A DNA stretch of 64,000 bases, taken from Chondrosia reniformis. Lineage: Eukaryota > Porifera > Demospongiae > Chondrillida > Chondrillidae. Every line of letters starts with the position of its first letter. Within the stretch, counting starts at the first letter, position 1. Shown in pieces: positions 14,916-62,493 of the stretch. Location: positions 9,312,996 to 9,376,995 of the forward strand of contig OX359191.1 of the NCBI GenBank assembly GCA_947172415.1, in the 5' to 3' direction. Position numbers and translations under genes: made by a program. The notes under the pieces were generated by a model that did no database searches, was not told where the DNA came from, and was given only the letters and a program-made list of their open reading frames with translations.

Positions 14916-17107
14916 ATGGCTGTTGCTCGACTAGGCAGGTTTTGTAGACCCGGAGTAAGATGTTGTTTGTTTAGAAACTTTAGCACATCAAAAAATCTTG
15001 GAAAAGAAAGAGTATTTGTCGTTGGTGTGGGCATGACCAAGTTCTCAAAGGTGGAGACTGCCTTTTTATCTATCTGTATGTCCTAATAGGAAGAGCTGCA
15101 TGTAATGTATGTAATAGTTCATTTGACGCATTACTGGTGCACGACACTACGAACGGTCCCTCCAACAATTACCTTGATATACTCGCATTTGGTGTGTGTA
15201 GCCATTAGGGGTCAAAGGTCCCAGCTTTATTGAGCTGGGGAAGGAGGCAGTTCACGAGGCGCTGAAGGACGCAGGAGTGCCGTACATTGCAGTGGAGGGA
15301 GCTGTGAGTGTTGGCTGATGTTTGGTCGTGCTCCGAGTCAATGCTTCTCACGCATGCAGCATGTTGGCTACGTCTTTGGACCTTCCACTAAAGGGCAGAG
15401 TGTGGTGTATCAAGCCGGCCTTACTGGAATACCAATCACCAATGTCAACAACAACTGTGCAACAGGTATATACATTGTAGCCACCTCACTCATTCCCACT
15501 GTCTGCCCCACCCTCTCCTGCCTGCCCCGCCCTCTCCTGCCTGCCCCGCCCTCTCCTGCCCGCCCCGTCCTCTCCTGCCTGCCCCGCCCTCTCCTGCCTA
15601 ACCCACCCTTTTCCTACCTAGGGGCCTCTGCTCTGTTTGCCTCTCGCAACATGATAGCTGGAGGGCTGGCAAGATGCACCTTGGCTGTGGGAGTGGAGAA
15701 GATGCAGAAGGGTTCTCTGACTTTGGACGTGGACGATGTCAATCCGATCGGTAGGTCTCTGAGATTAGATGGAAGACTGTGGTGGATTGTCTGTTTGTGT
15801 AGAGGATCACATTACCCAGTTGGTGAAGGAGTGTGGTCACCATGGCGATGCACCCATAGCACCTTGGATGTTTGCTGTAGCAGGGCAGCAGCACATGAAG
15901 AAGTAAGTCCTTTAACCTTTGACCTTTGCTCTCCCTAATCTCGCTGCTTGTTAGGTATGGCACAACCATAGAGCAGTTTGCAAAGATTGCTGTAAAGAAC
16001 CACAGACACTCGATCAACAATCCCAATGCTCAGTTCACTCAAGAATATAGTCTAAGTGACGTGCTGGAATCAAAGGAGATATTCTCTCCTTTAACAGTAA
16101 GGAACGTAGTAGCCAGGGGCTTTTATTAGGAGACACCTTACATTGTAGCAGTAGGCTCTTATGTATAAGAGGTACATGAATTGACTTTAGTAGTCTGTAC
16201 TGTTTGTAGAAACTTCAATGTAGTCCTACCTCTGATGGAGCTGCTGCAGTTATACTGGCCAATCAGGTGTGTCCGATGTCATGTGATTGTCACATGCTTT
16301 CATTTATTTATTCATTTATTTATTTATTTATTTATTAGGAATTTGTAAAAGATCATGGCCTCCAAGATAATGGTAACCACAACTATTGTGTTTAGTATTT
16401 TCTAGAGTTATGTGATGTTCCACTTGTACTGTTTAGCTGTAGAGATTGCTGGGATATCTCTTGCTACTGATGTGCCGAGCTCATTTGACAACCCTATCAG
16501 TAGGTCTACTCAATCCACTTGGTGCTAGTTCTCTAACTTCTGTGGTCCCCTTCAGATGTAGTAGGCAGTGCCATGACAGTGAGGGCTGCTAGGCAGGCCT
16601 ACAGAGAGGCCGGGATTGCTGTGAAAGAAGCCCAGGTTGTTGAACTACATGACTGCTTCTCTGTAAATGAGCTTCTAACATATGAAGCACTGGTCAGTAA
16701 GAATATCATTCAGTACTAAAGTAGTTTGAAATTTATTACCTCTTGCTCCCCTCTCCTTCTCTAGGGCATGTGTGATGAAGGTGATGGAGGGGCTTTGGTT
16801 GACCGAGGTGATGTGACCTACGGAGGGAGATGGGTGGTCAACCCAAGTGGTGGCCTCATTTCCAAGGGACATCCCCTTGGGGCTACAGGTGTTGCGCAAT
16901 GCATAGAGCTATGCTGGCAGGTAAGTACCTCACTACGGCTGCTGGTGTGTAACATCTGATGACTGCCTTTCCCCTCTTCATCCCTGCAATCCTTACCAGT
17001 TGAGAGGACTAGCTGGAGAGAGACAAGTGAACCCAGCCACTGTTGCTGTTCAGCACAACATTGGTCTGGGAGGAGCCTCTGCGGTAGCAGTGTACAAAAA
17101 ATATTGA
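14916..17107 (+). CDS. SCP-x-type 3-ketoacyl-CoA thiolase lacking the SCP2 domain
   Basis: A multi-exon gene; joined exons read through a full thiolase. Visible landmarks in order: [30 protein letters not shown] (nucleophilic Cys), [48 protein letters not shown] (catalytic His/Cys region) and VQHNIGLGG. The family cleaves branched-chain 3-ketoacyl-CoA in peroxisomes, with bile-acid/sterol side chains as vertebrate substrates. The ORF stops right after the thiolase fold (VAVYKKY), so the C-terminal sterol-carrier domain of vertebrate SCP2/SCP-x is absent. The first ~28 residues are rich in Arg, Cys and Phe with no acidic residue ([18 protein letters not shown]), which looks like a mitochondrial presequence, and there is no C-terminal SKL-type signal. 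Introns are 40-160 bases; one holds a C-rich CCTGCCTGCCCCGCC repeat (15492-15600) and another the paired octamer at 16279. Confidence 0.9.
15492..15602 (+). repeat. Intronic C-rich minisatellite in the thiolase gene
   Basis: Imperfect ~19-bp repeats of CCTGCCTGCCCCGCCCTCT in the intron after the NNNCATG exon, C-rich on the transcribed sense strand. Confidence 0.8.
16279..16297 (+). other. Paired intronic octamer, thiolase gene
   Basis: TCATGTGA-TTG-TCACATGC, two octamers 11 bp apart in near-perfect inverted orientation, about 12 bases after the 5' splice site of a short intron. Confidence 0.8.
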
Positions 17108-17241
17108 AAATGATTTATAATATTAAAAAAGTGTAATTATAATTGTTATGTAGTTAGTGGTACCGCTTGACTTTATTTTGAAGGGAAGTCATTAGAGAAA
17201 GTGCAACTTTAAATTTGTCGTCGGAAATTAAAGAATTCGAA

Positions 17242-18105: not shown

Positions 18106-18237
18106 GAAAGATGGACAAACCTATGTGAATTCTCATGTAAATAGTTTTATTTACTTTTAATGTTGTAAATATGTATGTAAAAACATGTACATTGTCAGAA
18201 GGACAGATTAAAATTTAAGTGGTATTACAGAGAATAG

Positions 18238-21098
18238 TTAAAATCTTTTGTTTCCATGGCAACCCTTTGGTGCCATTATATGCTTTCTCCAGCTTGCTTC
18301 ATCGTTCAAAACAGACTTGGAGCAAAGAGCACACCATTTCATGTTTGAGGGAGGGGCTACAGTAGTGAAATAGAGGGTTTTACTCTTGTACGCCATAATT
18401 ACCTCTATATGTACTGGAACACTTTTTGGCTGAAACATGTTTCTGGAATTGCGACACATGAATCGGCTCCTTGCAACAAAGACATTTGCGAAACTTCTTC
18501 TTTTCAGTACATTCAGCCATCCAGTGCACTTGCAATTGAGGAATCTCCACTACCTACATATGTATATTCTATAGTAGCCGCACTCACCTCTCTACAGTAG
18601 CCGCACTCACCTCTCTACAGTAGCTACACTCACCTCTCTACAGTAGCCGCACTCACCTCTCTACAGTAGCCGCACTCACCTCTCTACAGTAGCTACACTC
18701 ACCTCTCTACAGTAGCTGCACTGGTGTAGCATTGCACAGCTGGTAATATAGTGTGTCTCCAGCGTGGAGGCAGTAAACGATGGGTCAGAAAGACCACAAA
18801 AGACGCAAGAACTGAAAGGAGATATCAATAGCATGTTTTACAGAACAACACAAAGCACTAAATAACACACTTTTGGTTGTCTGTGGTAGCTAAATCATGG
18901 CTAGTTCGACTGTTCAGGGAGATAGTGGGAGATTTGAATCGGACACTTTTACTGTCAACAGCTGAGAAAATAAATAAACAATTTCAACATGAAGAATATA
19001 ATATTATATATTCACCTAAAGCTGAGGTTGCTACAGTAGGGGTCCTACTAGGGATTTTCCCCTGTTCAGCTGCCATTTTACGCAAGTGCTGAACTTCATT
19101 TTTGAGTGCATTCAGTTCCTCTACTTTTGCCTTTTCTTCTTCTTTTTTACTGTCCTAATATGGCAACAACCCATCACTATTTCCATGGCAACATGGGCAA
19201 AGGTACGTACCATACTGACAGTAGGTTTCCCATCAATCTTGTCGAGTCCTTCCATGACAGTTTTCCATAGAACACTCTTCCTCAGAGCTGCAGTGTCAGG
19301 AGGAAGTTCCCTGCGTACCTCTGCTGGAGTCAGCTTGTAGAGGTCAAAGGTCAACTGCACTGCCCTCTCTCTTACTTCCTTGTGGCTATGAACCATGCAA
19401 ATTGACAGCAACTGAGAAAGGATTGAAGTACTAGTTTTGGGCGATGGGTGCTGATTTGGGATGCAAATACCTTTATTATCCGATTAAACAATTGTGGTTC
19501 AATCAGATTCTTTTTCAATAAATCATTTATTAATTCAAGTCTACCTTTCACAATTTTCCAGTGAGGCAATGGTTTCGAGAAGTTTTCTGTGATCACCTCA
19601 AATACATTCGAAACATGCTGTATTTGTACACACAGGAAGGTAAGTACACACACACATACCAATGCTTGTAGCTCTGACCTTAATTCTTTCAAGTGATAAA
19701 ATATCTACAATGACCCCCTGAGAGTGTTGCGCAATTCTGTGGGTGTGGTCTCCCAGTCTGGTTAGGAGTTTTGAAACAACACTTGTGACAAATCCTTCAA
19801 AGTCTTCAAAACTGTACCTCAGCAGGAAGGGGGTCAAAGGTCAAACAGAACTGACATTGCCTAGACAAAGCCAAACTCACTATTTTGAATGTTTTGTAAC
19901 AAAATCAGTTGTCAAGTACTTTAGTAAATTGCAAGAGCTCTGAAAGACCTAAATATATATAAATGGTAATATTTCAGTGACACATGTTAAACTTGACAGT
20001 GCAGTTGAGGTTGACTATGTAAGCTGTTGCCGGGGGCAACCTCAGGACCTCGGTCTGCTTGTGTGAGTAGCAACTACCAGATCTGCCTACGTCTCGAGAC
20101 ACTCGGTCCTTGGGTACCCACATGTGTATTGGTTTCTATGGCAACAGACTTGAATGGGACTGACATAGATGTTATTTCAGACCCTAATCAGTCATACTGC
20201 AGCACACAACTGTCACATGACTGTCACACGACTGTCACATGGTCACTATCCTTACACTGAAGACTTTGTCATTGAGCAGTCTATACAAAAGCTGTTTAAG
20301 TGCTTTGAGCTCAGTTTGCAAGTCCTTCTTGTTCTGAATGTTCAGAGAACAGATCCTTTCACTTAAACTGTTTAAAGCACTCTCTCGATGATGGAACTGC
20401 TTACTATAGACCAACTTAACCTAGGAGGTGGAGCAGATGCATCACATGATCAGCACATGACTAGTTAAAGGGACAGCACCAATTCCATTCCAAATTCCTG
20501 GATAGCCAAAGAGCTCTCATTTTGAGCTTGTTCTCCAAGTGGTTCCGGAGGCAACAAGTCTCTGCCAGATAGGTCACTCACTCCAGAAGGATCGTTAACT
20601 CCAATGACCTCATCAGACCTACAGGTCCACACCATGATAAGCACTGCTCGGGTATGTACCGCTACACACATACCTCTTTAGCAGAGCTGGTAGCGGCCTC
20701 TCATCCTCTATTGTAACCATGGTAACAGAGGGCTTCACGTGGTGTTCTTGTTTCTTTGGACTTTCAATTACTGATAATTGAGGGGGTTCCCCCAGAGGTG
20801 ATTTACTAGGCTCTGGATCAGCAGGTGGGGGTTTGTTCGGTGAATGGAAGGAAACTCCCTATAGACAGCCAATGATCCATATGAGGGACTGTCCCTCAAT
20901 ACTCACATATTACAGGGACATCCCCTTACCTGTAATAGGGAGGGGTCCTGTATTAACTGGTGAAGGTTGAGTTGATGATAAACATGCCGTCTCAAGCTGT
21001 CACAATAGTCCTTCTTCTGCTTAGCTAGGTCAAAGTCTTCCCTCTCCACTGCACGTCTCTTTTCCACTTCAAACTGTCCCAGCACCTCTCCAACCTGA

Positions 21099-21152
<54 letters not shown>

Positions 21153-22240: not shown

Positions 22241-25022
22241 ATGGCGGATAGCAAAGCTAAAAGGTCTGCACACGTGCTGTATAGTCTCGTTTAGTGTGCA
22301 ACTTGTTTGCCTTGCAATTTAACAGGAGGAAGGTGGATATGTCAGAGATGTCGGTCGACGAATTCATGGAAAATGACTTTGCATCAGAAGACAGCGAAGA
22401 CAGCGAGATTGAAGAGACGATTCAGCGGGATCCGAGGTAGGTTGGTTGCAGAATAGCTTACCTATAAATTGTAGATTATTGCTCGTAGAGGGTCACACTC
22501 GAGAGGCCTAGCAAATCTGCAAGACATGGATAAAGAGTTTTACGAGTTTCTGAAGGAGAATGATCCCCAGCTGTTGAACTTTGACCTTTCCGACGAGGAC
22601 CTCTCAGATGATGCTGGTGATGCAAGTATAAATGAAGTTCCGGAAAAAGTGCCTTGTACTATCACATCATATCCAAAGGTATGTATATGTAGCAAATGGG
22701 TTGCAGTGTCATGTGATGGTCATGTGATCTACCTTACAGCCGAGTGGAGGTGTTGAACCGGAGGAAGATGAAAAGGAGGAGGAGCCTATGGAAGAATTGA
22801 CTACTGAAGTTGAGTCCCATAGTGAACCATCTGGTGTGCTTGTTACCATGGCAATGGTTAAGGGATGGCTAAAGACTGTTAAAAATGTGTGTTCTTAAAA
22901 GATTTGTAATTGTGTTCAAAATTATAAGTGTTACACCCTTTCTAATTAGAACAATTCCATGTCTGGAATGAGGGGGATAATCCTATCATTACATGGAGGT
23001 GTGCTTAAAGTAATTAGTCAAGAAAAAGACGATGAGGAAGACCCTGAATATATTGTCAAAGATAAGGAAGGTGTGTCCCCAAGATTGGAACCATCCACCG
23101 GCTGAGACACATGCCAATCTCTTCTCTGTAGTGTTTAATGAACTGCTGGTAGCTGGCTTGAAGAACATGGCGACCTTTCTTGAGTCACACCTTCAAGTGA
23201 AAGTGGGCGTGGCAACTCAGAAGAGGAAAATTACAACTCACAAGAAGTGGCCGAAGTTGAAGACACTTGTCAAACTCTACATACAAGACCTCATGACAGT
23301 TGGTGCAGCTGATGAGGTAGATGGTAGTGTACGCTGTACTGTGTCCCTTTGTCTGTGTACAGCTCCTGAAAGGGCTCAGCGAAGCCTCCATGTTGGCAGC
23401 CATTTTGAAACAGGTCCAGTCCTTAATTTCCTTTTTTGAAGTGTTCCCAAAGTTGCAGCGTCAGCTCTTCAAGCAGTTGGTTGTCTGCTGGAGCGAGGGA
23501 GAGGAACACGTTCGAGTCCTCTCCTTCCTCTCCATCAGAGCACTTGTTCTCCACCAGAACCTGCCACTCAGCAGGTCGCTCAAGGTTGGAGCCAATAGTT
23601 GCCAAATGTACTGTATTCGCAGTTATCGTACACTTTTGTGCTTGCAGACTTTATATTTAGCGTTTGTTCGGAATAGCAAGTTCACTTCAAGCAAGTCATT
23701 TCCTTTGATCAAGTTTATGCAGAATTCTCTAGTGGAAATGTGTCGTATGAATCCTGCCACTACATACCAACACGGCTTCCTTTACATCCGACAGCTGGCA
23801 ATGTTGCTTAGAAATGCTATGTCCGCTAAAAATAAAGTACGTATTTACCTTTATGTGGTGGTCACATGCTTGTCACATGACATCCTTACTCTGTCCTCAG
23901 GATTCCATTAATTCTTTGGCCAATTGGCAGTTTGTCCACTGTGTTCGCCTCTGGTGCAACGTCCTCTCGGAAGTCCAGAACGCCTCCCTCAAGCCTTTAG
24001 TCTATCCTCTCACTCAAGTGGCACTTGGAGCACTTCAGTATGAATATTTAGTTGTCACCTCCCTGCCCTCCAAATGCCCACCTCTCTTCCCTCCCCTCTC
24101 CTCTCTGCCTCAGGTTGCTCTCTTCTCCGAGATACTTTCCACTGCATCTTCACCTTATAGCTGCACTTCACAAGTTGTCTAATTCTCTCTCAGTCTTTGT
24201 GCCAACGGTGCCACACCTTCTGAGGATCATGCAGTGGAAAGGCAAGAAGCCAAAGGGCCAGGACACAATGGGGAAACCCCCAGATCTGGCATACCTCTGC
24301 AAGCTCTCCTCCGGATCACTGGCCAGTAAGGCCATTCAGGTACCAACTCCTCAATCTGTGTCACCTGGTCAGTGATCACCGCCTGTCATTGTGCAGACCA
24401 GCCTGATGGATGGCAGCTATGAACTTTTGATGGACTACTTTGCCATACACTCCAGCAGTATTGCCTTCCCAGAGCTCATTATACCTACTATTGTACAGGT
24501 GAGAGTCATGTGACAGTCATGTGATCTGTAGTAGTCCTTGATGCCTCTTTGTAGCTAAGGAAGTTGTCAAAAGAGACCAAGTTTACGTGGTTCAGGAGAC
24601 AGTTGAAGCAGTTGATTGAGAAGGTGCACATGGATCACATGAAGGCATTACATTACTTGTACCTCCTCCATCTTGTAGGCAGAAGAAGTGGCAGATGATG
24701 TGAAGCAAGCTAGGTCAACAGTGAATTTCTCTCCCAAAGATACCAAAGAAATTGTAATTCTTAATATCTACCATGCCCCTCCCCATCCTAACCACGCCCC
24801 TCCCCTCCCCATCCTAACCACACCCCTCCCTCACTATAGGAGATTTGGGAGAGTAAGAGAAGGTCTACAGTCACTCCTTTGGACAAGTACTTATCTTCTT
24901 GGAGACTTATCAAACAGAAAGAGACCAACGACAAGCAGCCTCACAACACTCCCTCCACCTCCAAGCAGCCTCACAACACTCCCTCCACCTCCACTTCAAC
25001 CAAGACTCATAAAAATGTTTAA
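22241..25022 (+). CDS. NOC2L: Nucleolar complex protein 2 homologue (NOC2L)
   Basis: NOC2 acts in the nucleolus in pre-60S ribosome maturation and nuclear export; the vertebrate protein also inhibits histone acetyltransferase. Exon 1 MADSKAKR joins RKVDMSEMSVDEFMENDF, matching the basic start and VDEFL motif of NOC2L. Then DMDKEFYEFLKENDPQLLNF, an acidic linker, and the Noc2 helical repeat region: FNELLVAGLKNM, HKKWPKLKTLVKLYIQDL, FPKLQRQLFKQLVVCWSEGEE, FVRNSKFTSSKSFPLIKF, TTYQHGFLYIRQLAMLLRNAM and NWQFVHCVRLWCNVLSEV. The C-terminus has EIWESKRRSTVTPLDKYLSSWR and then a short duplicated PHNTPSTSKQ tail rather than the long acidic tail of vertebrates. Introns are 50-80 bases; three carry the paired octamer (22709, 23862, 24506), and one is a C-rich CCACGCCCCTCCCC tract (24775-24835). 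Confidence 0.95.
22709..22727 (+). other. Paired intronic octamer, NOC2L intron
   Basis: TCATGTGA-TGG-TCATGTGA, direct copies 11 bp apart, ending 12 bases before the 3' splice site (CTACCTTACAG). Confidence 0.85.
23862..23880 (+). other. Paired intronic octamer, NOC2L intron
   Basis: TCACATGC-TTG-TCACATGA, 11-bp spacing. This is the one pair with both copies in the opposite sense orientation. Confidence 0.8.
24506..24524 (+). other. Paired intronic octamer, NOC2L intron
   Basis: TCATGTGA-CAG-TCATGTGA, 11-bp spacing, seven bases after the 5' splice site GTGAGAG. Confidence 0.85.
24775..24835 (+). repeat. Intronic C-rich tract in NOC2L
   Basis: Imperfect CCTAACCACGCCCCTCCC repeats filling a short intron, C-rich on the sense strand. 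Confidence 0.75.
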
Positions 25023-25118: not shown

Positions 25119-28100
25119 TCAATCTCCTAGCAAGTCTTCATCATCCAGGTTAATGTCCTGCAATGTATAGTTACCTTGACAACCATCATCATGACCAATC
25201 ACTATCCACTTACATCTACACCATCAGTGATTCCAAAGTCATCGTCATCATCAAAGTTCAGCAAATCCTATAAAATAGTAAATCCCATATTTTCTGAGGA
25301 TGACACAGTTTGCTAGTACATGTCTGAATACCTCTTGGTTGTCAGGGGCAACTGGTGTGTCCTTAGCTGGGACTGCCTTTTGAACAGGGCTAGCTGGAAG
25401 TGGCTTTTGACTGGCCTCCTCCAAAAGGTTGCGTTCAGCCTCATCCTAAATCATTAAAGGTCACATGACTGTCACATGACTAATGTAACCATGTGATATC
25501 ACACCTTGATTGTGGGGTATACTGAAGCTGGTTTCCGATTGGCCAGTTCGCCCTTTAATATCTAACATTAATTAAAATAGTTCAAAAGTTGTTCAAACTA
25601 TATTTATAGCAACTGACTTGTTCAGCACTCAAAGATAACTTGAAGTCTGAAAATAGGTTTTCATAGGAATCAGGATCCGCTAGTCTGTCAGCCATTTTCT
25701 GATTTGATTGAGCTAATTGTTCCTTCCACAGCTCCACAACCCTAAATAAACACATCTCCCTCACACAACTCTCTCTAGACTCACTGCAGAACAGGTCATA
25801 CCGTGTGATCTGGCTGGGCAGGTAAGTCCGGGCAAAGAAGGCTGCTTCAGGTAGCCTCTCCGAGCTCAAGAGGATATCCAAGCACTTCTCCACGTGACCA
25901 CACATCAAGTGGCATGTGAAGGCAATGTTGGTGTCCCCGCTCTTGAGCGCCTCCTCTGCCAGCCTCTCCATCATGACTGCATCGCCTGCGGAGGAGGCCA
26001 GCAGAAGGAGACCTCCAAAGTCCTTGGCTTTATACAAACACTCCTTTGCTAGACCAAATTCAAACTTTGCCAAAGCAAGATCTCCTAGGAAACGCCACTT
26101 TTCTTCTGACTACAGATGAACATTAAAGGGGAGGGTACACAAGTTAAAGGGGGAGGGGCAGTCATTTACCCCATCCTCACCTCAGACTGCTGCGCAATCT
26201 GGTATGCAGTTCGAAGGTCCTTTAGCTGAATTGCCAAATCAAATCTAAATGTAGAAGTAGACCTTAGACATCCAATCTCCAGACAATTTCACTCTATTAA
26301 GTGCCCACCTGTGGTCCGGGTCGTTGGAGACAGCCAGTGCCTGCTGCTTGAAGCCTTGTTTCTCCAGAAAGTGTGCCACTCTGGTCCTCTGGTCCTTTGT
26401 GACACGAGGAAGCACTTGGTCGGCCGTCTCAAAGTCCTGTCTCATCACAGCTGTCTGGTATTCCAGCACAGACAATTGGAGGGAAAACCCCACAATGTTC
26501 AGCTCTCTGTCCCCCAGATACAGTCTGTTGTGAGCCGGAATGTAGCCCAACAGATACATTGGCCTGCACAAGAGAGGAAGTAGACAGTGGATGGCTACAA
26601 CAGTGCAGCACCATACGTACCTATCCAAGTGTGACACTGTCACAATTTCTCCTCCAACAAAGTAGTTGAGTCGATTGACATTGTTGGTGTATATGAAGCA
26701 GTCTCCCACCCAACAACCTGCTCGCACGACCTCATCCATCTCTGCTACCACATCAAAGGCATTCTCCACTCCATCATCATCAATCCCTTCGTTTGTAGAC
26801 AGCGAATGTTGAACTTCTTCTGCACTGTATTTCAATATATAATAGGACTCCTCTGTTACTATGGCAACCATTCCACTATTTTCTGACCAATAAACCTAAT
26901 ATGGGAATGGACGCTGTCACTAGGAACATCCAACAGCATGACATCCTCGTCAGTAGACGTGATACAGCTATTGACAGTAGACACAATTGCACATTTAGTG
27001 CTCAAATAATTACCAGTTTTGGTTGAATTTCAATTCTTCTAATTAATTCCTGGTTCTCCCAGTCATAAAATGTTAATCTGTTGGCAGACCTCACCCCTAG
27101 CAAGTTCCCTCCAAAGATTCCTATTAGACAAGAAACAGGTGACAAGCAGCACTGATAGACAAAGGTCCAGATTACCTTCAGCTCCTAGCTCTGGCTTAAA
27201 GGATTTAATTTCTTTGAAACCCTTAAAGAGCTTAACTGTGCTAGACGATTCTCTGGTAGCATATTCGTTGGATTCTGCCGCCCACACAAACTCTTGAGCA
27301 TTTCCAAAGCTCTTGTTCCTCAGAGCCATTGCAGTGTATATAATGTACTCTCCATCTCCACAGACTGTAACAAACCTACAGCAGGGAACAGATGGGGGTG
27401 TGGATAGTGACAGGGGGTGTGCCTGGTGACAGGGGGTGTGGCTAGTGACAGGGGTGTGGATAGTGACAGGGGGTGTGGCTAGTGACAGGGGTGTGGATAG
27501 TGACAGGGGGTGTGGCTAGTGACAGGGGGTGTGGCTAGTGACAGGGGGGGTGGCTAGTGACAGGGGGGGTGGCTAGTGACAGGGGGTGTGGCTAGTGACA
27601 GGGGGTGTGGCTAGTGACAGGGGGTGTGGCTAGTGACAGGGGGTGTGGCTAGTGACAGGGGCGTAGCTAACCTTCCATTGGGACTGTGCAGAATCGTGTT
27701 GGGAAATATCTCACAGCTTCCCATGTCCTTAATTGCTAGGGGCAACCTCTCTCCATCTGTGAACACTGCATCAGCTATGATCTTCAGATTGGCTTGTTGA
27801 ATTTCATTGTGTTTGGCCCACAGCACCTTCCCCGAGGTGTCCATGCTCATAGCCGGCTCTTCTCTACCCATCTATGGGATGGAGGATGGAGGAGGGTGGA
27901 GGAGGTAGGGGGAGGTAGGGGGAGGGTTAAACAAGTACCTTAATAACTACACTGCCTTCATCGTAACCAATAGCAACATCATTGCTACCTCTCAAATGAG
28001 CAAAGGCCCACACTCGCTCCATCCCATAGTTTAGTGATGTTTCCAGACGATACGTGTTAGAATGCCATATTCTAACAGTACCTGTAAGTGATCGAAGGGG

Positions 28101-29507: not shown

Positions 29508-29578
29508 TGTACTTCTTGTCTTTCTCTGAACAATCACGTGGCAAAACCGGGAACCGAGAAACGAAAAATGGTCACAAA

Positions 29579-42545: not shown

Positions 42546-42738
42546 AGGCACTACAATTGGAGCCTATGGGCTGCTGTCATGACCAGACTACTTCACTTGT
42601 CATTTATGACTACTTTTATTGCATTTACAATTTTCACTTCAGCTCCAATTAACTATGACAATAAACATTGTGTACAAATACCATATCTGGACAATGAGAG
42701 TGATTAAAAACGATTCATGCATTGCATATGCGTCTATA

Positions 42739-47878: not shown

Positions 47879-50800
47879 ATGGCGGCAGACCCTGAACAAC
47901 AAGATCTCCAGACTTAGTGAGTTGCGTTTATCTTCGTCTTGTGAGTAAACATCAGTTGCGACCAAATCTCTTTTCAGTTTAACTAATCGCGAGTTCTTTC
48001 AGCTCGTCTCGGGCGCATGCGGGCAGCTCTTGATCGATGATGACACGAAAAAGGTACGTACCTTTTGCAAGTATTTTGTTGGCCAGTAGGTCTCTGACTT
48101 GCATACTCACAGAGCGGAGTTGTGAAGCTGTATGCTGAGCGCTTCACTGCCATGCTGAGCTATTACAAGAAGCCCTGCCAGAGATCTCTGAACACTGTCA
48201 AGTCCCATCTGAAGGGAACCATGCTGGACTTTGTCCTGGAGATCAGCAAGACACTGGTAAGCACTTGAATGGCTTGGTTGACCTGTCTCAGCTGCCTCTC
48301 CTCTGAGCAGTGTCTGGACGAGGTGCAGTCGGAGGAGCTGCTCGAGTGCTTCCTCGCTGACAGCTACAGAGGCACTTCAAAGGACTTTGTCAACCTTCTC
48401 ACAGGCCAGCCTCAGGCCAAGCACACCCTCCTGACAGAGGTGGGCGTGACACCTTACCTCCCAGCAGTGTACACCTACTTTAATGAGAATGACTGTAATT
48501 TCCATTTACAGGTAATGAGATTTTATAGAAACGAGAGGGTTTACCTCTTAAAATCCATTAGGCAAGTGATTGTCAGCAAATTAGGCAACTATGACAACGA
48601 ATTTGTTTCCCTGGCAACGGATCTGTTGGATCCTTCCCTCCTAACAACCTCTTGGAAGCTCTTCACAGAAGCAGTGACCTCTGACCTTCCCCGTCGTCCC
48701 ACACTGGTTTGTACACTGTGTGTGAATTCTCACTAAAAGTGTGTGATTCCAACTCCCATTTGCAGTCCCCAGAAGTGGAACAGGAATTGGTCTTGTGGAA
48801 TTTACAGGAGCAAGTGGAGCTGCTCCAAATAATGCACACCTTTGCCCTCCTGGAGGAGGTTCCTCTGAAGGATGTACCTGTCTATGCTGAGGTTTTAAAG
48901 GACTGTCAGTTTGCACAACACCAGCCTCAGGCATCACTGGTTGTCAACAAGCAGTGCTCACTGCTATTGCATAACATTTGCCATCTCTCCTCCACTCTGC
49001 TCCCCGTACTCTGCCCGCTACAAGATGGCCGCCCTGAAACACTGAATGACAAGAATGTTTGTGAAGTAAGTTTTTACGTGATTTCTGTTGCACAAGCTGG
49101 AGCTTTTTGATTCTGCTGCAGAAACTGGTTTCTATGGTAACTGATTCTTGGAGAGATCTGCCACATTATTCACCAATCATTTTGTATGTTGCTGCAATTA
49201 AATATCAGTCAGTTAGTGGTTGCCATGGTGATATGGATGGCACAGTCGACGAACAAGTGTCTCTAAATGAAGTGCATAGCCTAATACACAGAGCATTGCA
49301 AAACGATGCACTCAATTTTCTATTAGCTGTACTATCAAACGAAGACTTGGTAAGTGTTATTGTGCAATCTCTACATTTGATTTCCTGCCACACCCCTCCC
49401 TGCCACACCCCTCCCTGCCACACCCCCTCCCTGCCACACCCCCTCCCTGCCCCCCTTAGAGGGTCTGCTGCGATGGTGTGTACAAATTTGTGTACAATGT
49501 GCTCAAGTGTTTGAACAGAGCAGTTGGACTGGACACTCTTCCCCAACAGAACATCCTCAGCCAACTTACGTCAAAACTACTTACAAACAGCACTGTTAGG
49601 AAAGATTTTTGGAAACATGTCAGTACAGGTGGAACAATTTGTTGTTAATTACACAATCCCTCACATCACCTCCACTCCCCTCCCCTCCCCCTCTCCTCAC
49701 CTCCACTCCCCTCCCCTACCCCTCTCCTCACCTCCACTCCCCTCCCCTCCCCCTCTCCTCACCTCCACTCCCCTCCCCTACCCCTCTCCTCACCTCCACT
49801 CCCCTCCCCCTCCCCTCCTCTCCCTCTCCCTCCCCTCCCCCTCTCCTCACCTCCACTCCCCTCACCTCCCTCTCCCTCCCCTCCCCCTCCTTTCACAGGG
49901 TCCAGATGAAGATCTGAGTGTCATTGTGCTGATGTCCCAGGCCACATTTCCAGTCACTTGCTCCTCCTTCCTAAACCTTCTCCTCTCCCTAGCCCCGCAC
50001 GAGACCACTGCTCATCATGTGATGCGGCTGATGGACACAGTGCCCTACTTCACTGAGGTGCTCTCTGAGGACCTCACACAGCTGGACGTTGAGTGTCAGG
50101 AGGTCACTACAGTCTCAAGGGACTGCAAGGTCGTGTATCCCAAAGGTCAGTATGCCAGTCATGTGACTGGTCATGTGACTGGTCATGTTACTCCTCTGTT
50201 GTACAGAATCTGCAGCTCTTGGGAAGGAGTTGGTAATACCAGCCAATACTGTGGGCCACATTGTGCAACTTGGAGGTATGTTTGTGCAATCTGCTTCCCC
50301 TAGCTGTGTCACTGTCTTGTGTTCCGTTAGAGCTGCAGGCAGTTTGCTGGAATGTGGAATACTCTGCCTGGGACTTCCTGTTGCTGCAGGCCATCCACCT
50401 ACACTCCTCAGGACAGGCCCTCTGTGGGTGCACTGAAGGGTCAGGTGCCCACACTGCTAGTAACGTGTCCCTCTTTGCTGTAGTCTCCCAAGTGACCATC
50501 CCTCATGACATCGCTGATGTGGTGGAGAATGTCACAAAGCTTTTCGACATTGTCTCTGAACTGCTTCACTCCATAGAAGATGCGGCTAATAAACTCCACC
50601 CACAAATATCAATGTGTTTTCACTTCTTACATAGGTGACCAGTAATTGTATATAAAAATATCTTTCTACTACTACTCTCTCTCTCTATATATATATATTA
50701 TTTATATTAGATTACCTTAGTATATTGTAACTTGTACTGTATATATAGATTCTCTGCCTGCCCCTCCCCCTCGCTGCCCCTTTTGGCTAGCTGCATAAGG

Positions 50801-53800
50801 TGTATCACAGCCTACCTAGAGCTCCACCCCTCAGAGGTCAGTCAGCTGATTAGGGGTCTAACTCAATGGAACTCCCACTCTGGTTTCCTTCCAGGCCTGG
50901 GTCCACTTGCTAGAGACAGGATTTTTGCCACATCGACTTGTAGTACCTTCAGCTAATAAGAGGTCAGTCAATACTCTAGAGTATACTGAAATATCCTAGA
51001 ATGGCCCTGTTATCCTAGAACATCCTGGGTTATCCCAGTGTATGTTATAGACTTACACTTATGCAACTTGTGATGTTGTATGCAGCACTAGTGTGGCTTC
51101 TGGACACTTTGGACATCTGTTAGCCGTACAGGAGCAAGCTAAAGGAAAATACCTGGTTACCATGGAAACACTTGATTGTATTCACACTGCTCTTGGTGCC
51201 AGAAAATTCTTGGGAAATTCCCCAGAATTGTTGATCTGTGTTATGTACATTGTTGAAGAGTTAGTTCCAGCGTACTGCAAGTGGAGGTTTGTTCAAAGGA
51301 ACGACTTTTACAAGATCAGTAAGTGATCTCCTTATTAGGTAAATGGGTATCTATGTACTATTGAGTGTTGTATTTATTAGGTCTGAAATTAATGGACATT
51401 GTCACAGCTTGTCTGTGCATGAAGGACACTCCTTTTTGTGAGTTTGTTAAACATTCATTGCAAAATACTGTAGCTGGGCTAAGCCTATTGAACAACATCT
51501 CTATGGGAGCGGTTGCCCTGGAAACCAGAGCAGCATGGTTAGTGCTGTTGTATTTGTGGTGCAATTCGCTGTTAATATTGTGCAATTCTCTGTTAATATT
51601 GTGCAATTCTCTGCAGGTGGAGTAGTTTAAGAAAAGATGTCATTTGTGAAGTGCTGAAGGCCACCTTTACCATTTTGGAGTGTTTGATGTCTTCTCGAAG
51701 TGACAGCTCTCCTCTGACAGCACTTGAGTCTGCCTTTGTGCACCATTCACTGGACCAGCGTCACTCCATGTTCCCAGCACTCTGTTCCTTCCTATACCCC
51801 CAGGGGGACCCTTCTCTGCGGACCAGTGCCATCCGGCTGATGACAGCCTTGTGCAAGGTAAGTTCAGACCTGCTCAATGGACCACTCCTTATACAGGTGC
51901 TCGATTTGACGGCTTCTTGTTTCTTGTTGTGTAGAGAATACCAATGTCAGTGTATGCTAGCCTCGGAGAGGAAGCCCCTGCCATTAGAGACACTCTGGTG
52001 TCCCGCCTCTCAGCACTGTCATCTCCTCGACAACTAATCACTAGCATTCTGCAGTTCATATCTGTCGCCATCCAGACACAACCAAGTTTGACGGAACTCT
52101 TTCTAGCACTTCAGAAGACCAAATCAACTGCTCAGGAAGCAGCAGTCAGTCTCTATAAACCAAATTGTATTGCTACAGCTGTAGCTGCTTTTCTAAATTC
52201 GTTTATTTAGTCTTTTGAAATTAATGAGATGGAGGGTTGTTTAACTCCAATTATGGATCACCTGGTGGCATTTAAAGATGGCCGCCTTCCTTACAGCATA
52301 GCTTCGTCTGTGTATGATGTACTGAGGAACTTGTGGAAACACAAACGAGATGCAGCAGTTGTGGCCATAAAGCAAAGGTTTAGGCACAACCACACCCCTT
52401 TATGACACACCCACCTGCAGCCACACCCCTTATGACACACCCACCTGCAGCCACACCCCTTATGACACACCCACCTGCAGCCACACCCCTTATGACACAC
52501 CCACCTACAACCACATCTTATTACTAGCCTCACTCTCTCTAGTGCTAATTTTTGGCCAACTTTGCTATACCCACTCTTCAATGATTTGGAGGTGTGGTAC
52601 CAATCCGAGGAGGCGTGTCACCAAAGCACTGAGCAATTCAACACCATTTCCCATCTCCTCTACATTCTAACAGCCGAAGGCTACTACTTGGCCAAGTATG
52701 GTATACACAAACTGACTATTGCTTAATACAGAATACATTGCCAATAGTGCACATATAAATACTGCCTGTATAGGTCATGTGACAGTAGTCTGGTCAGTCT
52801 GTTTAGGGAGTTCTCCTCCAAGAGGAAGTACAGCTACTGGACAATGGTGGGTTCAGTGCCAGTGGCCCTAAGCGGTGATGATCTGATTTGCCTCTTTTTC
52901 AGAAATGTGGAAAATTGGAAGAAGATGAGATTCAAGCTGTGCTGACTTCGGCTCCCGTGAAGGAATCTCTTAGAAGAGCACACATCAAGTTTGTAAATGA
53001 ATGGTGCAAGTTTCTATTGATTGCCTCAAAGTACCATGTAAGTGATATGTACAGTACATATACATCACATGCTGATCATGTGACTTTGTTATTTTATGAG
53101 CAGACAGCTGCTTTTGGTCTAACAGAGGATGTGATAGCTGAAGCACTCGAGGCTCTTCTGTGTGCTTTAGAAGAACACTCTAAAGACCCTGTCTCCAAGG
53201 AGACCCTGGAAGTGTGCACCTACCTCAGTAACACTCTCATGATCATATTGAGATACCAAAGACAGTCAGTCTTCTACCATCCTCCTTCCTTCTACCATCC
53301 TCCTTCCATCTACCCATCCTCCTTCCATCTACCCATCCTCCTTCCATCTACCCATCCTCCTTCCATCCACCCATCCTCCTTCCATCCACCCATCCTCCTT
53401 CCATCCACCCATCCTCCTTCCTTCTACCATCCTCCTTCCACCTGCTCTGTAGATCTGCCAAGGCTATAGTAAGGATAAGTGAGATGGTGGAGAGTGTATG
53501 TCGAGTGCTTCAGTACGGTTGGGGACTAGTGGACTTTGCTCCAACTGTTCCTTCTCCTCTAGTGAATCTCTTTTCCACCAGCATCACACTAATACAGGAA
53601 GCCAGATCCACTCAAGGTAATGTGTAATTGCAAGCATAGTTTGAGAAGTGTGGGTGTGGTTTAAGAAGTTCCTCATTTCATATAGGTTCACTAGATCTTC
53701 GTTTCTGCCACGGGTATATCCCTTTCATTAGTAAAGTGTTGCAAAAGGTCTCATTTGTGGACCCCCTTTCCAGTGATCTGATGGAGGTCTGTAAGAGAAT

Positions 53801-55725
53801 ATGGCTCCATATTCAATGGTATCCATTTGTGGATCTCATTCACCTGTAGATTACCGTATTGGCAGTTCTGCTGTTGAATGAACTGTGTCAGTTCTGCACC
53901 TCCAACCAGAAAGATGGCCCCTGGTTGACTGCTTTGCGTCAAAATTCCATTCTACAACATATTGTTCAGGTCATGGACAAATCACTTCGAGTTAGTTGCT
54001 AGGCAACATGAATTCACTATTTGTACATCAGCATGTGGTGTGTTTGTCTCAACAGAGCAGTAGCATGCAGTTGGTGGTGGACGCTTGTCTCTCCCTCCTC
54101 TTGGGAGTATCCCAGTTCAGGGAACTGGCCAAACTGCTGGTTATGAACAATCTTGATCAGCTGCTGTGTTTGTCATTTGGCAGCATATTTGACAAGATTG
54201 ATGAGGAGGAGGTTTCCATGGAAACAGGTGGTAGTCATGGCAATGAGTATATTACTGGGACATGGATGAACAGCCTCAGTCTTGTGTCAAACCTTCTGGA
54301 CACTCTGGATCACATATTTGTTCAAACAGCAATTGATTTTACTGGAGTACATGCTAAGCAGTTGTTACAGGTACGTATGTGTTGCCATGGAAAGTTCCAT
54401 GAAACCTTTCATTATCTCTTGATTACAGGGGCTCACCCTTCCTATGGGTGATGGTGTCAAAATTAACAACTTTATTAGGATTTTGGAGACAGTTGAATTA
54501 GTAAAAAAGTTAATGAAATTCAAAGAAAAGTGGCAATTTAAGCAACCTGAAGTGTACACTAGTGTTGTAGTAAGTTGAAAAGTTTGCAGTTGTTTGATTA
54601 AACAAAAAGTTCTTTTCTTTAGGACTGCTGTGTCAAATTATGTTGCACTGTGGTCGGAGTGTTGAATAATCCACGCTTGATAAGGCAGCTATCGCATGTG
54701 TGTATTCATATGCCCATACAAATGTCATCTGACATATCATGTGACCTGTGTATTGTATAGGATGTTCAAGAGAACAAGAGTAACAAAATTCAAGTTTCTA
54801 GTTCAGATTCAAATTCTTCAAGTTCATCTGAGGATGATATTGATGAGCACCTTCAGTGGATGTAAGCGAACGGACTGATCGTCAAGTTGTCCCAAAATGC
54901 ATGACATGACTTATGTTGATTAGATTGTTTTTGATTGTGGATGACTGTATAGCCATACAACAGCAGTGCGCACCCACTTTGATTGAACTACATAACGATG
55001 GGGTTAGCCTCACACTAAAGTCCCTCTGTGTGCAAAGTCAGAGGTTTCTCTGCTGTTTGTGCAGCGAGTGCAGGACAATGTGATATTGGTTGAACCAAGC
55101 TTTGCTACTCCTCAATTGTCTGCTGAACAGAACCAGATGACAATTGGAACATTGACAACAGCTTTAGACTGTGCTAGAAGTCTCCTTAAGCAAAAGGTCA
55201 GCACGTTTCTTTCTCTCCACTAGAACATTTGTGTACTTCTGTTGTATATTTCACTAGAGCACGCGAGGTGTCAGGAAGGACTGCAGGTTATTGTGTATTG
55301 TAGCTTGATAAGCCAGTGATTTAGCATTTCCTATGTCTCCCCTCCCAATAGGGTTCTCTTGCACTTCATGGAGCAAATCTTAATGTTCATTGTGTCGCAG
55401 TCCATCTGTATTCTGGCCAGCCCAACTCTGGAGACAATGCAGAAGGAGTTCCTGAAGAGAGAACTTTCCAGTGAACTTGTGAGCAATCCAATATGTTAGA
55501 TAATCTTGTGTTGTTGTACACTTTCTGATCCTTCTGTAGGAGACCTTTCTCTCGGGGATTTCCCGTTATTTTACCCGTAAAGGGTTTTCCCCTGCCATAT
55601 CACCACACAAAAGTAAACCATTTGATGATTCATGTTCTTCTAAAACAGCATCAAGTTTTAGTGAAACACCAGAACAAGGAATATTTAGGCTGACAGCTAT
55701 CTTCATGTCTGAACACTTAAAATAG
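47879..55725 (+). CDS. NUP188: Nucleoporin NUP188
   Basis: NUP188 is a ~200 kDa inner-ring scaffold nucleoporin and partner of NUP93. The gene has roughly 30 exons. Start: MAADPEQQDLQT, spliced to LTNREFFQLVSGACGQLL. The CLDEVQSEELLECFLADSYRG exon (48311) aligns with the human LDEEQSVQLLQCYLQEDYRG. Later landmarks are a long helical-repeat region, VYPK|ESAALGKELVIPANTVGHIV (SH3-like insert, about 50130-50275), LVPAYCKWRFVQRNDFYKI (51260-51320), IPMSVYASLGEEAPAIRDTL (about 51935) and QFISVAIQTQPSLTELFLAL. The C-terminal ELSSELETFLSGISRYFTRKG ends at FRLTAIFMSEHLK (55725). Introns are 50-250 bases; four contain C-rich minisatellites and three the paired octamer. Exact exon ends in the middle are not all settled. 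Its last 66 coding bases recur at 58523. Confidence 0.92.
49385..49455 (+). repeat. Intronic C-rich repeat, NUP188
   Basis: Five copies of CTGCCACACCCC(C)TCC, pyrimidine-rich on the sense strand. Confidence 0.85.
49663..49895 (+). repeat. Intronic ~42-bp C-rich minisatellite, NUP188
   Basis: CACCTCCACTCCCCTCCCC and CTCTCCTCACCTCCACTCCC units, strongly pyrimidine-rich on the sense strand and running up to the 3' splice site CTTTCACAG. Confidence 0.92.
50159..50190 (+). other. Intronic octamer triplet, NUP188
   Basis: TCATGTGA, TCATGTGA and TCATGTTA at 12-bp steps with identical CTGG spacers, in a ~65-base intron. Confidence 0.85.
52388..52510 (+). repeat. Intronic ~31-bp repeat, NUP188
   Basis: Four units of CCACACCCCTTATGACACAC plus CCACCTGCAG. 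Each unit carries a CTGCAG acceptor-like word; C-rich on the sense strand. Confidence 0.9.
53065..53083 (+). other. Paired intronic octamer, NUP188
   Basis: TCACATGC-TGA-TCATGTGA, inverted, 11-bp spacing. Confidence 0.8.
53270..53440 (+). repeat. Intronic ~19-bp repeat, NUP188
   Basis: CCTCCTTCCATCTACCCAT units, pyrimidine-rich on the sense strand. Confidence 0.9.
54725..54744 (+). other. Paired intronic octamer, NUP188
   Basis: TCATCTGA-CATA-TCATGTGA, 12-bp spacing, shortly before the 3' splice site GTATAG. Confidence 0.7.
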
Positions 55726-56450: not shown

Positions 56451-56599
56451 AACACAGTGCATATCCCTATGTATAAAAAATTGGAAAGTATTCTAGATTT
56501 TCAGATACAGTATAGAATTTTGTCATTGTTATAATATTATACCTTCTAACGGTCGGCCATATGTAGTATTACGCAATTTTCTCTAACAATACATTACAT

Positions 56600-58510: not shown

Positions 58511-58522
58511 GCATTCACAGAC

Positions 58523-59831: not shown

Positions 59832-62493
59832 TCAGAATGGGAACTGGAATGAGAACCCTCCAGGTGAACTTTGACTTCTGAACCCATCAAAGCCCCCACT
59901 ACCTGCAAAAGGAAGCACTTCTTATAAGTTGACTACAATGATGGAGAGGAGGTTTAATTATGGAAATCTTACTTGAGAAGGAGAAGCCCGGTGGCCCTCC
60001 ATATCCTCCTCCAGTGAACAAGGAAGAGAAGAGTTCTGATGGATCAAAACCTACAAGAAATAAACATCATCTGGAACACAAGGGAGTGCAATACATTATA
60101 AATCATACCTCCACCATCGATTAAGTCCTCCATATCTGCTCCGTTGTCATAGCGATGCTTCTTTTGTGGGTCAGATAGTACTGAATAGGCCTCTCCCACC
60201 TACCACAGGTGGAGTAGCTAAACAATGGTACATACCACAGCTGGTAAAGATCTCACCTCCTTAAACTTGTGTTCCATCTCAGCTTTCTCTTCAGGAGATG
60301 CAGTAGGATTACGATCTATATAGTATAGTCATGGTAATATACACCCCATATGGTAACTATGGAAACAAGTACCTGGGTGGTGCTGTAAGGCCTTTTTGCG
60401 ATAAGCCTTCTTAATTTCGTTGCTGTCTGAATTCTTTTCAATTCCAAGGATTTTGTAAAAGTCTTTTCGCTTACTAATCTTCAGAAGTCTCTTTGCCTCC
60501 ACGAGCTGCTGTTTGGTGTCTCTGGAGGGATCCTGCTTGTGCAACTTCTCAAAGTCTCTGACTGCCTCCTCGTGCTGGTTGTTGTCTTGGTAACTGCAGC
60601 AATGGATGGAAGGCAATGAAAAAATGCTGTTGGGCGTGGTAAAAGCCCTGGGCTCTTACAGTTTTGCTCTCCTCTGAAGTGCTCGAGCATAGTTAGGGTC
60701 CAGTTCGAGAGCTCTTGTGCAGTCCTCTATGGCTTCTTGCATTTTACCAATCTGCAAGTTGGATACATACTCTAATTAGTACCCACCCAGTCACCTGTGT
60801 GAGTGCAGCCATGTGAGAGCAGCTATTTGCGAATATACCTTAGAACCAGCTAGAGCTCGATTGCAGTACAGCTTAGAGTTAAGGTCTACATTGTCAGGAT
60901 CCACTGTGAGAGCTTCCGTGTACACTGCATATGCCTCCTCGTACTGCCCTGACTTCAGCAAGGTGTTCCCTTGCTCCTTCTTCACAACCACCTGCTTGGA
61001 TCTCTGGAACGGTAAGCAGGCATGTTATAAACTTGAATGGGTCACATGATGATCACATGACCAATATAGCAGAACTAGTGTGGCTTACTCTAAGGGACTG
61101 TCTGGCCCTTTGGTTGTCTGGGTCAAGTGTGAGCACTTGTTTAAAATACTCCACCGCCTTCTCTGGGTTGCCTTGCCGGAGAAGGCACATACCCCTAACG
61201 TACACTGCCTCCGAGTTCATCCGGTTCTCCTGAAGCACAGCACTGGAGCAAAGTACAACAGAAGAAACTCACTATGCTGATCTGCGCCTTGCTCAAGTGA
61301 TGTGCAGAGGAGAAACTCACTTTACAATTCTAGATGCCTCATCATACTTGTTGTCCAACATTAACAGTTCTGCTATCCGTATTTCAAACTGCAGTGCTCC
61401 AGGACATTGTGCATGAGCTTGTTGGAGATAGAAGTAGGCAGATCTGTAGTCACACACTTCAAAGTACTTTTCTGATTTTGACAAATACTGCATCACATTT
61501 TCAATTGTCACCAACTACGAAAAGAATACAGTCCTTTTGGAGGTGGGTGTGGTGCTTCTGGGGTGGGTGTGGTACTTCTGGGGTGGGTGTGGTGTTCTGG
61601 GGTGTGTGTGGTGCTTCTGGGGTGGGTGTGGTACTTCTGGGGTGTGTGGGTGTGGTACTTCTGGGGTGGGTGTGGTACTTCTGGGGTGGGTGTGGTACTT
61701 CTGGGGTGTGTGGGTGTGGTACTTCTGGGGTGGGTGTGTTGCTTCTGGGGTGGGTGTGGTGCTTCTGGGGTGGGTGTGGTACTTCTGGGGTGGGTGTGGT
61801 ACTTCTGGGGTGGGTGTGGTACTTCTGGGGTGGGTGTGGTACTTCTGGGGTGGGTGTGGTACTTCTGGGGTGTGTGGGTGTGGTAGGTATAGTGTGGTAT
61901 ACTCACCATACTTTTGGGGTCTTGATTAGAAGGCTCAAGTTCAATAACTTTTAAAATTTCTTTTTTTGCTAACTGGGGTTTACCCATCACCAGATATCCT
62001 TGGCCTAATCTGAAATGACTCTACGAGGGGGAGGAGGAGTGGAGAGGGGGAGGAGTGGGAGTGAGTGTGGGTGGAGTGGAGAGCATATACTCTGCCCGAA
62101 TACCTTTGCATGTGATGGGTTCTTGAGGACTGCAGTTTGTGCATCGTCTACCGATTTGGAATAGTTCTTTAATTTAAAGTACGTAAATGAACGGTTTGTG
62201 TATAAAATATAATTCTGTGGATCGCATTCTGTGGATAAAGGGCATTCAGTGGAACATATACAACAGAGATCAGCGACGCAGTCCTAGCGACCTACCAATG
62301 GCCTTGGTGTACATGTCCAGCGCACTCGAGTATTCTCCCTGTCTGAAAAGATCACTTCCTACTTTCCGACATCTTTCAGCCTCCGCTAATCGTCTACAAC
62401 CAGATTGGGTGTAATTATAACGTTTCAAAAGTGACAGATCAAATCTTACGTTTCTGAGCTGTTAATCTCCATAGGTTCCTCGTTCATCGCCAT
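59832..62493 (-). CDS. DNAJC7: DnaJ homologue with TPR repeats (DNAJC7/TPR2)
   Basis: DNAJC7 is a cytosolic co-chaperone that binds both HSP70 and HSP90 through TPRs. The start is MAMNEEPMEINSSE (62493). TPR exons include MVTIENVMQYLSKSEKYFEV, QQAHAQCPGALQFEIRIAEL, NSEAVYVRGMCLLRQGNPEK, KEQGNTLLKSGQYEEAYAVY and DNVDLNSKLYCNRALAGSK; KRKDFYKILGIEKNSDSNEI begins the J domain. The exon break splits the HPD motif (HHP-G|AT-CGT gives HPDR at about 60373/60313). The end of the J domain is VGEAYSVLSDPQKKHRYDNG, and the Gly/Phe-rich tail ends GGFSFQFPF, close to the human FFFQFG ending. A GTGGTACTTCTGG minisatellite fills one intron (61545-61880). PTCD1 diverges 78 bases away. Confidence 0.94.
61042..61060 (-). 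other. Paired intronic octamer, DNAJC7
   Basis: TCACATGA-TGA-TCACATGA on the plus strand, TCATGTGA twice on the sense strand, 11-bp spacing. Confidence 0.85.
61545..61880 (-). repeat. Intronic ~20-bp minisatellite, DNAJC7
   Basis: About 16 units of GGTGGGTGTGGTACTTCTGG with a TGTGTGGG variant; CCAGAAGTACCACACCCACC on the sense strand. Confidence 0.95.

What the first reader, a model, noticed from the sequence alone, without database searches (positions are those of the whole stretch)
16279..61060. Paired TCATGTGA/TCACATGA octamers on 11-12 bp spacing in short introns of seven genes
Thirteen introns in this window carry two or three copies of an octamer, nearly always 11 bp apart (12 bp with a 4-base spacer in two): starts 16279, 20213, 20442, 22709, 23862, 24506, 25461, 30152, 31693, 50159, 53065, 54725, 61042. 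Eighteen exact octamers are intronic; two would be expected by chance in 64 kb. The genes are unrelated (thiolase, CEP104, NOC2L, COPB2, CENPS, TLDc, NUP188, DNAJC7; eight if CENPS, whose copies are degenerate, is counted). On the sense strand the direct pairs are almost all TCATGTGA, and in RNA two UCAUGUGA copies can pair with each other over 8 bp using two G-U wobbles, while inverted cases (31693) pair perfectly with a 3-base loop. The opposite orientation, which would give C-A mismatches, occurs in both copies only once (23862). This suggests a selected intronic hairpin, or a shared origin of the introns (introner-like). It could also be a dimeric bHLH E-box (CACATG/CACGTG) on one DNA face.
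Basis: partly seen in the sequence, partly recalled or inferred. Interest (0 to 1): 0.88.

Follow-up and report, generated by a model that had tools for sequence, protein, structure and literature searches.

The report
Phased E-box arrays in sponge introns
In a marine sponge, a ten-letter DNA word that looks like a transcription-factor landing site occurs thousands of times, hundreds of them in pairs one helix turn apart; the pairs that were sampled lie mostly inside short introns, and the evidence points to a DNA-level site that multiplies by local duplication rather than to an RNA hairpin.

Summary
The window lies 39-103 kb from the end of chromosome 3 of the kidney sponge Chondrosia reniformis (identified from contig lengths). 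The unit is a decamer, RTCATGTGAY: 8,108 copies in 117 Mb against 1,621 for the reversed word, while the same core with opposite flanks (YTCATGTGAR) shows no excess (1,293 against 1,427). Direct pairs number 53, 814 and 69 at 10, 11 and 12 bp. Of 40 pair places examined, 38 fall in predicted introns. The window's sense-strand bias disappears elsewhere (direct pairs 13:11), direct pairs outnumber perfect inverted ones 814:275, and sense TCACATGA pairs hardly fold, so the RNA-hairpin reading fails as a general account; the introner reading fails because the introns share nothing else. Best reading: homotypic arrays of a bHLH-zipper E-box (TCATGTGA is a published MITF site; the genome has a MiT/TFE-like gene), multiplied by local 11-bp duplication and kept with one-turn phasing. 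Which protein binds, and whether selection or duplication-prone mutation maintains the arrays, is not shown.

The parts
16279..16297 (+). inverted pair TCATGTGA-TTG-TCACATGC in intron 16267-16338 of the thiolase-like gene
   Evidence: miscalled it as exon
20213..20242 (-). three copies at 11-bp steps (one exact), intron 20136-20255 of the CEP104-like gene
20442..20460 (-). direct pair, one exact, intron 20404-20474 of the CEP104-like gene
22709..22727 (+). exact direct pair, 11 bp, intron 22679-22739, NOC2L
23862..23880 (+). direct pair in the TCACATGA orientation, one exact, intron 23837-23900, NOC2L
24506..24524 (+). exact direct pair, 11 bp, intron 24499-24554, NOC2L
25461..25479 (-). exact direct pair, 11 bp, intron 25446-25504, COPB2
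30152..30170 (-). degenerate pair with one TCACGTGA, predicted intron 30071-30232 between UBIAD1-like and COPB2 exons; may be intergenic
31693..31711 (+). perfect inverted pair, intron 31672-31724, TLDc-like gene
50159..50190 (+). three copies at 12-bp steps (two exact), intron 50146-50206, NUP188-like gene
   Evidence: intron margin low (3.5)
53065..53083 (+). inverted pair, one exact, intron 53038-53103, NUP188-like gene
54725..54744 (+). direct pair at 12 bp, one exact, intron 54698-54760, NUP188-like gene
61042..61060 (-). exact direct pair, 11 bp, intron 61004-61088, DNAJC7

Best explanation
These are homotypic clusters of a double-stranded DNA site, RTCAYRTGAY, the kind of E-box read by bHLH-zipper dimers of the MiT/TFE type. 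Single sites multiplied locally by tandem duplication of an 11-bp unit (the 10-bp palindromic frame plus one free base), and arrays that keep neighbouring sites one helix turn apart were retained, so that successive dimers sit on the same face of the DNA. Arrays are found mostly in introns because introns are most of the non-coding DNA of the gene-dense chromosome ends. Shown: the decamer and its flank rule, the spacing, the lack of strand preference relative to genes outside the window, the intron location in the sample, homogeneous spacers within 11-bp runs, and a MiT/TFE-like gene in the genome. Inferred: that this protein (or another bHLH-zipper) binds, that the arrays act as intragenic enhancer or chromatin elements, and that selection on phasing keeps them.
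For: Decamer: RTCATGTGAY 8,108 sites against 1,621 reversed; YTCATGTGAR 1,293 against 1,427. Spacers obey Y-N-R at unrelated loci: 48 and 49 of the 50 listed (of 150) inverted pairs, middle base free (on the list); outer flanks R in 27 and Y in 28 of 31. Spacing: direct pairs 53 / 814 / 69 at 10 / 11 / 12 bp with reversed controls 7 / 1 / 0. Strand symmetry: 13:11 outside the window, 18:11 with it (p 0.26 for 18:11). Local duplication: 15 of 21 adjacent spacers identical in the 17 runs of the listed part (C1 and C2), 0.066 between loci. Octamers intact while spacers differ: 9 of 12 adjacent 12-bp spacers differ. MITF binds TCATGTGA with only a moderate loss against TCACGTGA (PMC10539308, passages). 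A MiT/TFE-like bHLH exon lies at C10:425969, best PDB matches MITF E 5.7e-11 and TFEB 1.3e-8. Precedent: short insertions at germline-bound sites often duplicate the motif and build homotypic clusters in human (PMC8559717, abstract and passages); local duplication builds fly binding-site clusters (PMC3188502, abstract and outline).
Against: No binding, chromatin or expression data. The best mammalian MiT/TFE site, TCACGTGA, hardly occurs in arrays: one TCACGTGA-N3-TCACGTGA in the genome, although RTCACGTGAY has 931 sites (control 451), listed places running evenly along the first 5.9 Mb of C1. The window's genes are not an evident MiT/TFE (lysosomal) set (my judgement). Arrays lie along gene bodies, not only near starts. 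Inside the window and its flanks the strand bias is 14:3 (p 0.013). Whether introns are favoured over intergenic DNA is not settled: 12.5 of 18.8 kb unassigned to genes in the window is a 169-bp satellite. Exact-match searches select intact octamers, which inflates their apparent conservation over spacers.
Confidence: 0.55

Rival explanations
1. Mutation alone: the motif is a hotspot for short tandem duplication in the germ line (protein-bound or break-prone DNA); the arrays have no function and drift in introns, like minisatellites at recombination hotspots near chromosome ends.
For: Spacers are homogeneous within 11-bp runs (15 of 21). Longer-period minisatellites on C1 (steps of 19, 20, 22, 34, 37 bp) also carry one octamer per unit (seen in the list). 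The window is rich in other minisatellites. Pairs lie closer to chromosome ends than RRM-domain exons do (median 0.086 and 0.082 against 0.166 of chromosome length; p 0.006 for both pair sets together). Motif-duplicating insertions at germline sites are described in human.
Against: Does not by itself explain the 11-bp peak, intact octamers where spacers differ (9 of 12 adjacent 12-bp spacers), or the Y-N-R flank rule across unrelated loci. It needs some sequence-specific protein in any case.
Confidence: 0.27
2. Selected intronic RNA hairpin (sense UCAUGUGA pairs folding with G-U wobbles), for example a splicing element.
For: Inside the window direct pairs are nearly all sense TCATGTGA; over the window and flanks 14:3 introns (p 0.013). 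Predicted pairing is 0.61 in sense TCATGTGA introns and 0.97 in the two sense TCACATGA..TCATGTGA introns. Sampled pairs lie in introns.
Against: Bias gone outside the window (13:11; the skipped L019 and the mixed L004 are also on the TCACATGA side); sense TCACATGA pairs hardly fold (0.14, 11 introns); perfect inverted pairs are the minority (275 against 814); the Y-N-R spacer and outer R/Y flanks fit a 10-bp DNA palindrome.
Confidence: 0.06
3. Introners: the introns were created by insertion of one mobile element that carried the pair.
For: Many unrelated introns share the pair.
Against: With the motif masked, 35 array introns show no more similarity than shuffles (3 BLAST rows against 0-4); motif position and orientation within introns vary.
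Confidence: 0.02
4. Decayed CLEAR-type arrays: ancestral TCACGTGA arrays lost their CpG by methylation-driven C-to-T change, giving TCATGTGA or TCACATGA.
For: CpG is depleted here (observed/expected 0.38); some arrays mix TCACGTGA with TCATGTGA (L003, L014) or both decayed forms (L026); palindromic flanks are kept.
Against: Only one TCACGTGA pair remains; listed TCACGTGA sites do not crowd at the chromosome end; orientation within pairs is concordant 3:1 and spacers within 11-bp runs are mostly identical, so most duplication came after the present form.
Confidence: 0.1

Closest known systems
MITF/TFE (MiT/TFE) E-box sites: CLEAR box TCACGTGA, TYR element TCATGTGA, M-box
   Same: Identical octamer, with the 5' T and 3' A named as important for MITF (PMC10539308, passages); a MiT/TFE-like gene is present
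   Different: The TCACGTGA form, best bound in mammals, is almost absent from the arrays; arrays at 11 bp along gene bodies are not part of what I saw described
Tandem E-boxes of CLOCK:BMAL1
   Same: Two bHLH dimers on closely spaced E-boxes
   Different: 6-7 bp between hexamers, plus 3 bp on nucleosomes (PMC12424780, passages), CACGTG core; here 5 bp (11-bp period), RT...AY flanks, mostly CATGTG core
Homotypic clusters built by local duplication (human germline binding sites, fly enhancers)
   Same: Motif copies arise by short tandem insertions next to the site (PMC8559717, abstract and passages; PMC3188502, abstract and outline)
   Different: Here one motif is multiplied genome-wide with a single preferred step of one helix turn
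Introner elements
   Same: Many introns sharing a short sequence
   Different: Nothing shared beyond the site
E-box (G-box) motif of Amphimedon promoters
   Same: Sponge, E-box enrichment (PMC4773876, passages)
   Different: That motif is around transcription starts; the word 'tandem' does not occur in the text

Membership tests
MiT/TFE-bound E-box | TCAYRTGA core with T and A flanks | tested here: met
   site definition
MiT/TFE-bound E-box | TCACGTGA as the preferred form | tested here: not met
   one TCACGTGA pair against 814 direct TCATGTGA pairs
MiT/TFE-bound E-box | a MiT/TFE protein in the genome | tested here: met
   exon at C10:425969
MiT/TFE-bound E-box | bound in vivo | not testable with these tools
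   no binding data
Homotypic binding-site cluster by local duplication | neighbouring copies more alike than copies at other loci, spacer included | tested here: met
   15 of 21 against 0.066 for listed 11-bp runs; weaker (3 of 12) for 12-bp runs
Homotypic binding-site cluster by local duplication | the copies are binding sites in fact | not testable with these tools
   no binding data
Intronic RNA hairpin | sense-strand bias towards the foldable orientation | tested here: not met
   13:11 outside the window, although 14:3 in the window and flanks
Introner | introns homologous beyond the motif | tested here: not met
   masked all-against-all BLAST, 3 rows against 0-4 in shuffles
CLOCK:BMAL1 tandem E-box | 6-7 bp between hexamers | tested here: not met
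   peak at 5 bp (11-bp period, 814); 6 bp (12-bp period) has 69; 7 bp was not counted

The most novel reading that the evidence does not exclude
A sequence-specific protein active in the sponge germ line both marks RTCATGTGAY and triggers its tandem duplication in one-turn steps, so that one transcription-factor site is actively colonising the introns of a whole animal genome, most of all near chromosome ends.
Probability: 0.25. Interest if true: 0.8.

Novelty: new variant of a known kind. Interest (0 to 1): 0.6.

Why it matters
Clusters of one binding site are known, but a single decamer that is five-fold enriched across an animal genome, with about a thousand pairs at one helix turn and, in the sample, lodged in introns of ordinary genes, is unusual. 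It gives a countable natural system for asking whether site clusters grow by selection or by duplication at protein-bound DNA, and it may reveal an intragenic regulatory code in a compact sponge genome.

Tried and rejected
RNA hairpin: rejected as a general account on strand symmetry and folding. Introner: rejected. CpG decay of TCACGTGA arrays: lowered, not excluded. USF as reader: no clear USF among the 18 HLH matches (my reading; names other than MiT/TFE are recalled, not searched). Comparison with other sponges: the tool states that this genome has no relatives here; I made no scan of viral contigs, genome contigs or metagenome contigs, so conservation is untested. Literature: searches listed nothing that describes such arrays in a sponge; these are capped listings (for example 25 of 537), and only passages or outlines of the papers named were seen. 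My gene finder was trained on the same sequences that it classifies, except L089-L096; 3 of 35 array introns have a low margin (50159, L092, L096).
Full report
What was checked. The window holds 21 exact TCATGTGA/TCACATGA; 100 dinucleotide-preserving shuffles give a mean of 4.91 and a maximum of 12. Distances from an exact TCAYRTGA to a partner with at most one mismatch peak at 11 bp (16) and 12 bp (4), both-exact pairs counted from each side, with at most 1 at any other distance up to 60. Among 309 predicted introns under 300 bp in the window plus 40 kb of flank, this octamer ranks second of 13,159 by number of introns that hold it (19, tied with an overlapping octamer; the reversed word 5).

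Where it is. The window is C3:9312996-9376995 of a 117,379,552-base genome in 15 contigs. The contig lengths agree within 0.01 Mb with the 14 chromosomes and the 17.45-kb mitochondrion of the Chondrosia reniformis assembly odChoReni1.1 (PMC12181767, abstract and passages with Table 3). Chromosome 3 is 9,415,654 bases long, so the window lies 39-103 kb from its end.

Genes. No annotation was at hand, so I wrote a small gene finder (coding Markov model, donor and acceptor profiles, Viterbi) and trained it without outside evidence on 36 sequences, 212 kb. It finds 664 introns, median 68 bp. The exons tried for the thiolase-like, TLDc-like and NUP188-like genes gave no Pfam match, so those names rest on reading the predicted proteins. 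CENPS was not confirmed. In the final model 13 of 13 pairs and 20 of 21 exact octamers are in introns, with 30152 uncertain because its gene model fuses two genes.

Genome-wide anatomy. TCATGTGA-N3-TCATGTGA: 382 forward plus 432 reverse, reversed control 1. With two spacer bases 53 (control 7), with four 69 (control 0). Inverted pairs with three spacer bases: 150 (control 0) and 125 (control 1; about 20 of these belong to one repeated locus family on C2 at 1.9-2.2 Mb). TCACGTGA pairs: 1. The loose form TCAYRTGA-N0-30-TCAYRTGA has 2,960 places (control 791), among them local arrays of longer period. Single sites: RTCATGTGAY 8,108 (control 1,621), YTCATGTGAR 1,293 (control 1,427), RTCACGTGAY 931 (control 451). 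The unit is therefore a 10-bp palindromic frame, R-TCA-YR-TGA-Y, and the TCATGTGA core is in excess only with these flanks (mixed flanks were not counted).

Spacer rules. In the 50 listed of 150 inverted pairs the first spacer base is a pyrimidine in 48 and the last a purine in 49, the middle one free. In 31 pairs from held loci the outer flanks obey the same rule (27 and 28 of 31), and the neighbouring registers show degenerate further copies. In the 17 eleven-bp runs listed (C1 and C2 only), 15 of 21 adjacent spacers are identical against 0.066 between loci; in the nine 12-bp runs, a complete list, only 3 of 12 are. So local duplication plays a large part, but octamers are also found intact where spacers differ. 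Exact-match searching biases this last comparison.

Introns and strand. Of 40 exact pair places in held loci (window, C1 start, L051, and eight loci fetched afterwards from C1-C5, C7 and C10), 38 are in predicted introns and 2 outside (L006:2197, L089:994); after merging places in one intron and skipping a 450-bp intron (L019), 35 introns were kept. The eight later loci, outside the training set, gave 7 introns and 1 unclear, two of the seven at low margin. Direct pairs: 18 sense TCATGTGA, 11 sense TCACATGA; without the window's five, 13 to 11. In the window and flanks the octamer occurs 29 times in 33.8 kb of intron, 4 in 50.6 kb of exon and 0 in 19.6 kb of unassigned DNA, but in the window 12.5 of the 18.8 kb unassigned is a 169-bp satellite, so introns against intergenic DNA remains open.

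RNA folding. Mean fraction of octamer bases paired with the other octamer: 0.61 in 18 sense TCATGTGA introns (range 0 to 0.97), 0.14 in 11 sense TCACATGA introns, 0.97 in 2 and 0.53 in 2 inverted introns, 0.07 and 0.00 in two others. A selected hairpin should favour inverted pairs and one strand; neither holds genome-wide or outside the window.

Introner test. With motif and splice ends masked, the 35 array introns give 3 BLAST rows (2 intron pairs, 10-11 bases) at E up to 0.1; five shuffles give 2, 0, 4, 1 and 2.

Chromosome position. Period-12 pairs (50 after merging within 50 kb) and listed inverted pairs on C1-C6 (42) lie at a median 0.086 and 0.082 of chromosome length from the nearer end; RRM-domain exons (74 after merging) at 0.166; p 0.006 for both pair sets together. 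RRM exons are themselves crowded towards the ends, so gene density explains much of the bias.

Which protein. The genome has 18 HLH matches. The exon at C10:425969 reads as MiT/TFE (MITF E 5.7e-11, TFEB 1.3e-8, USF 5.4e-4 in the PDB). Mammalian MITF binds TCATGTGA with only a moderate loss against TCACGTGA, and the flanking T and A are important (PMC10539308, passages). That makes MiT/TFE the first candidate, not a proven reader; the shortage of TCACGTGA in arrays speaks against a simple version.

Mechanism. A step of 11 bp places sites on one DNA face. Tandem E-boxes of CLOCK:BMAL1 use 6-7 bp between hexamers, and 3 bp on nucleosomes (PMC12424780, passages); here it is 5. Human germline binding sites gain copies by short tandem insertions (PMC8559717, abstract and passages), and fly enhancers show local duplication (PMC3188502, abstract and outline). 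I therefore favour duplication at a bound site followed by retention of the in-phase arrays, with mutation alone as the main rival.

Noticed in passing
window 927-13003 and 56611-58523: A 169-bp satellite (about 91-93% matches, over 28 copies in the longest block) fills much of the left end and recurs near 57 kb with a unit that looks like the reverse complement.
   Followed up: partly
window 13641-14058, 17541-17927, 27394-27661, 35929-36139, 40027-40360, 41971-42546, 43131-44117, 61542-61876: Many minisatellites of period 15-49 bp in and between genes, some read as coding by the gene models.
   Followed up: no
   Followed up: partly
G000 C1:230348-230674, 685242-685509, 830845-831099, 1097267-1097340, 1190634-1190845: Minisatellites with steps of 20, 37, 19, 22 and 34 bp that carry a TCATGTGA/TCACATGA per unit (list).
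   Followed up: partly
G000 C2:1879803-2219403 and C4:6489744-6517065: The same inverted pair recurs mostly every 12-16 kb (C2, 20 places) and every 8-11 kb (C4, 4 listed places), which suggests tandemly repeated large units.
   Followed up: no
L005, L022, L026, L034, L035: In these introns a sense TCACATGA starts at donor position +6 (GTRAG or GTTGG followed by TCACATGA), so array and splice donor overlap.
   Followed up: no
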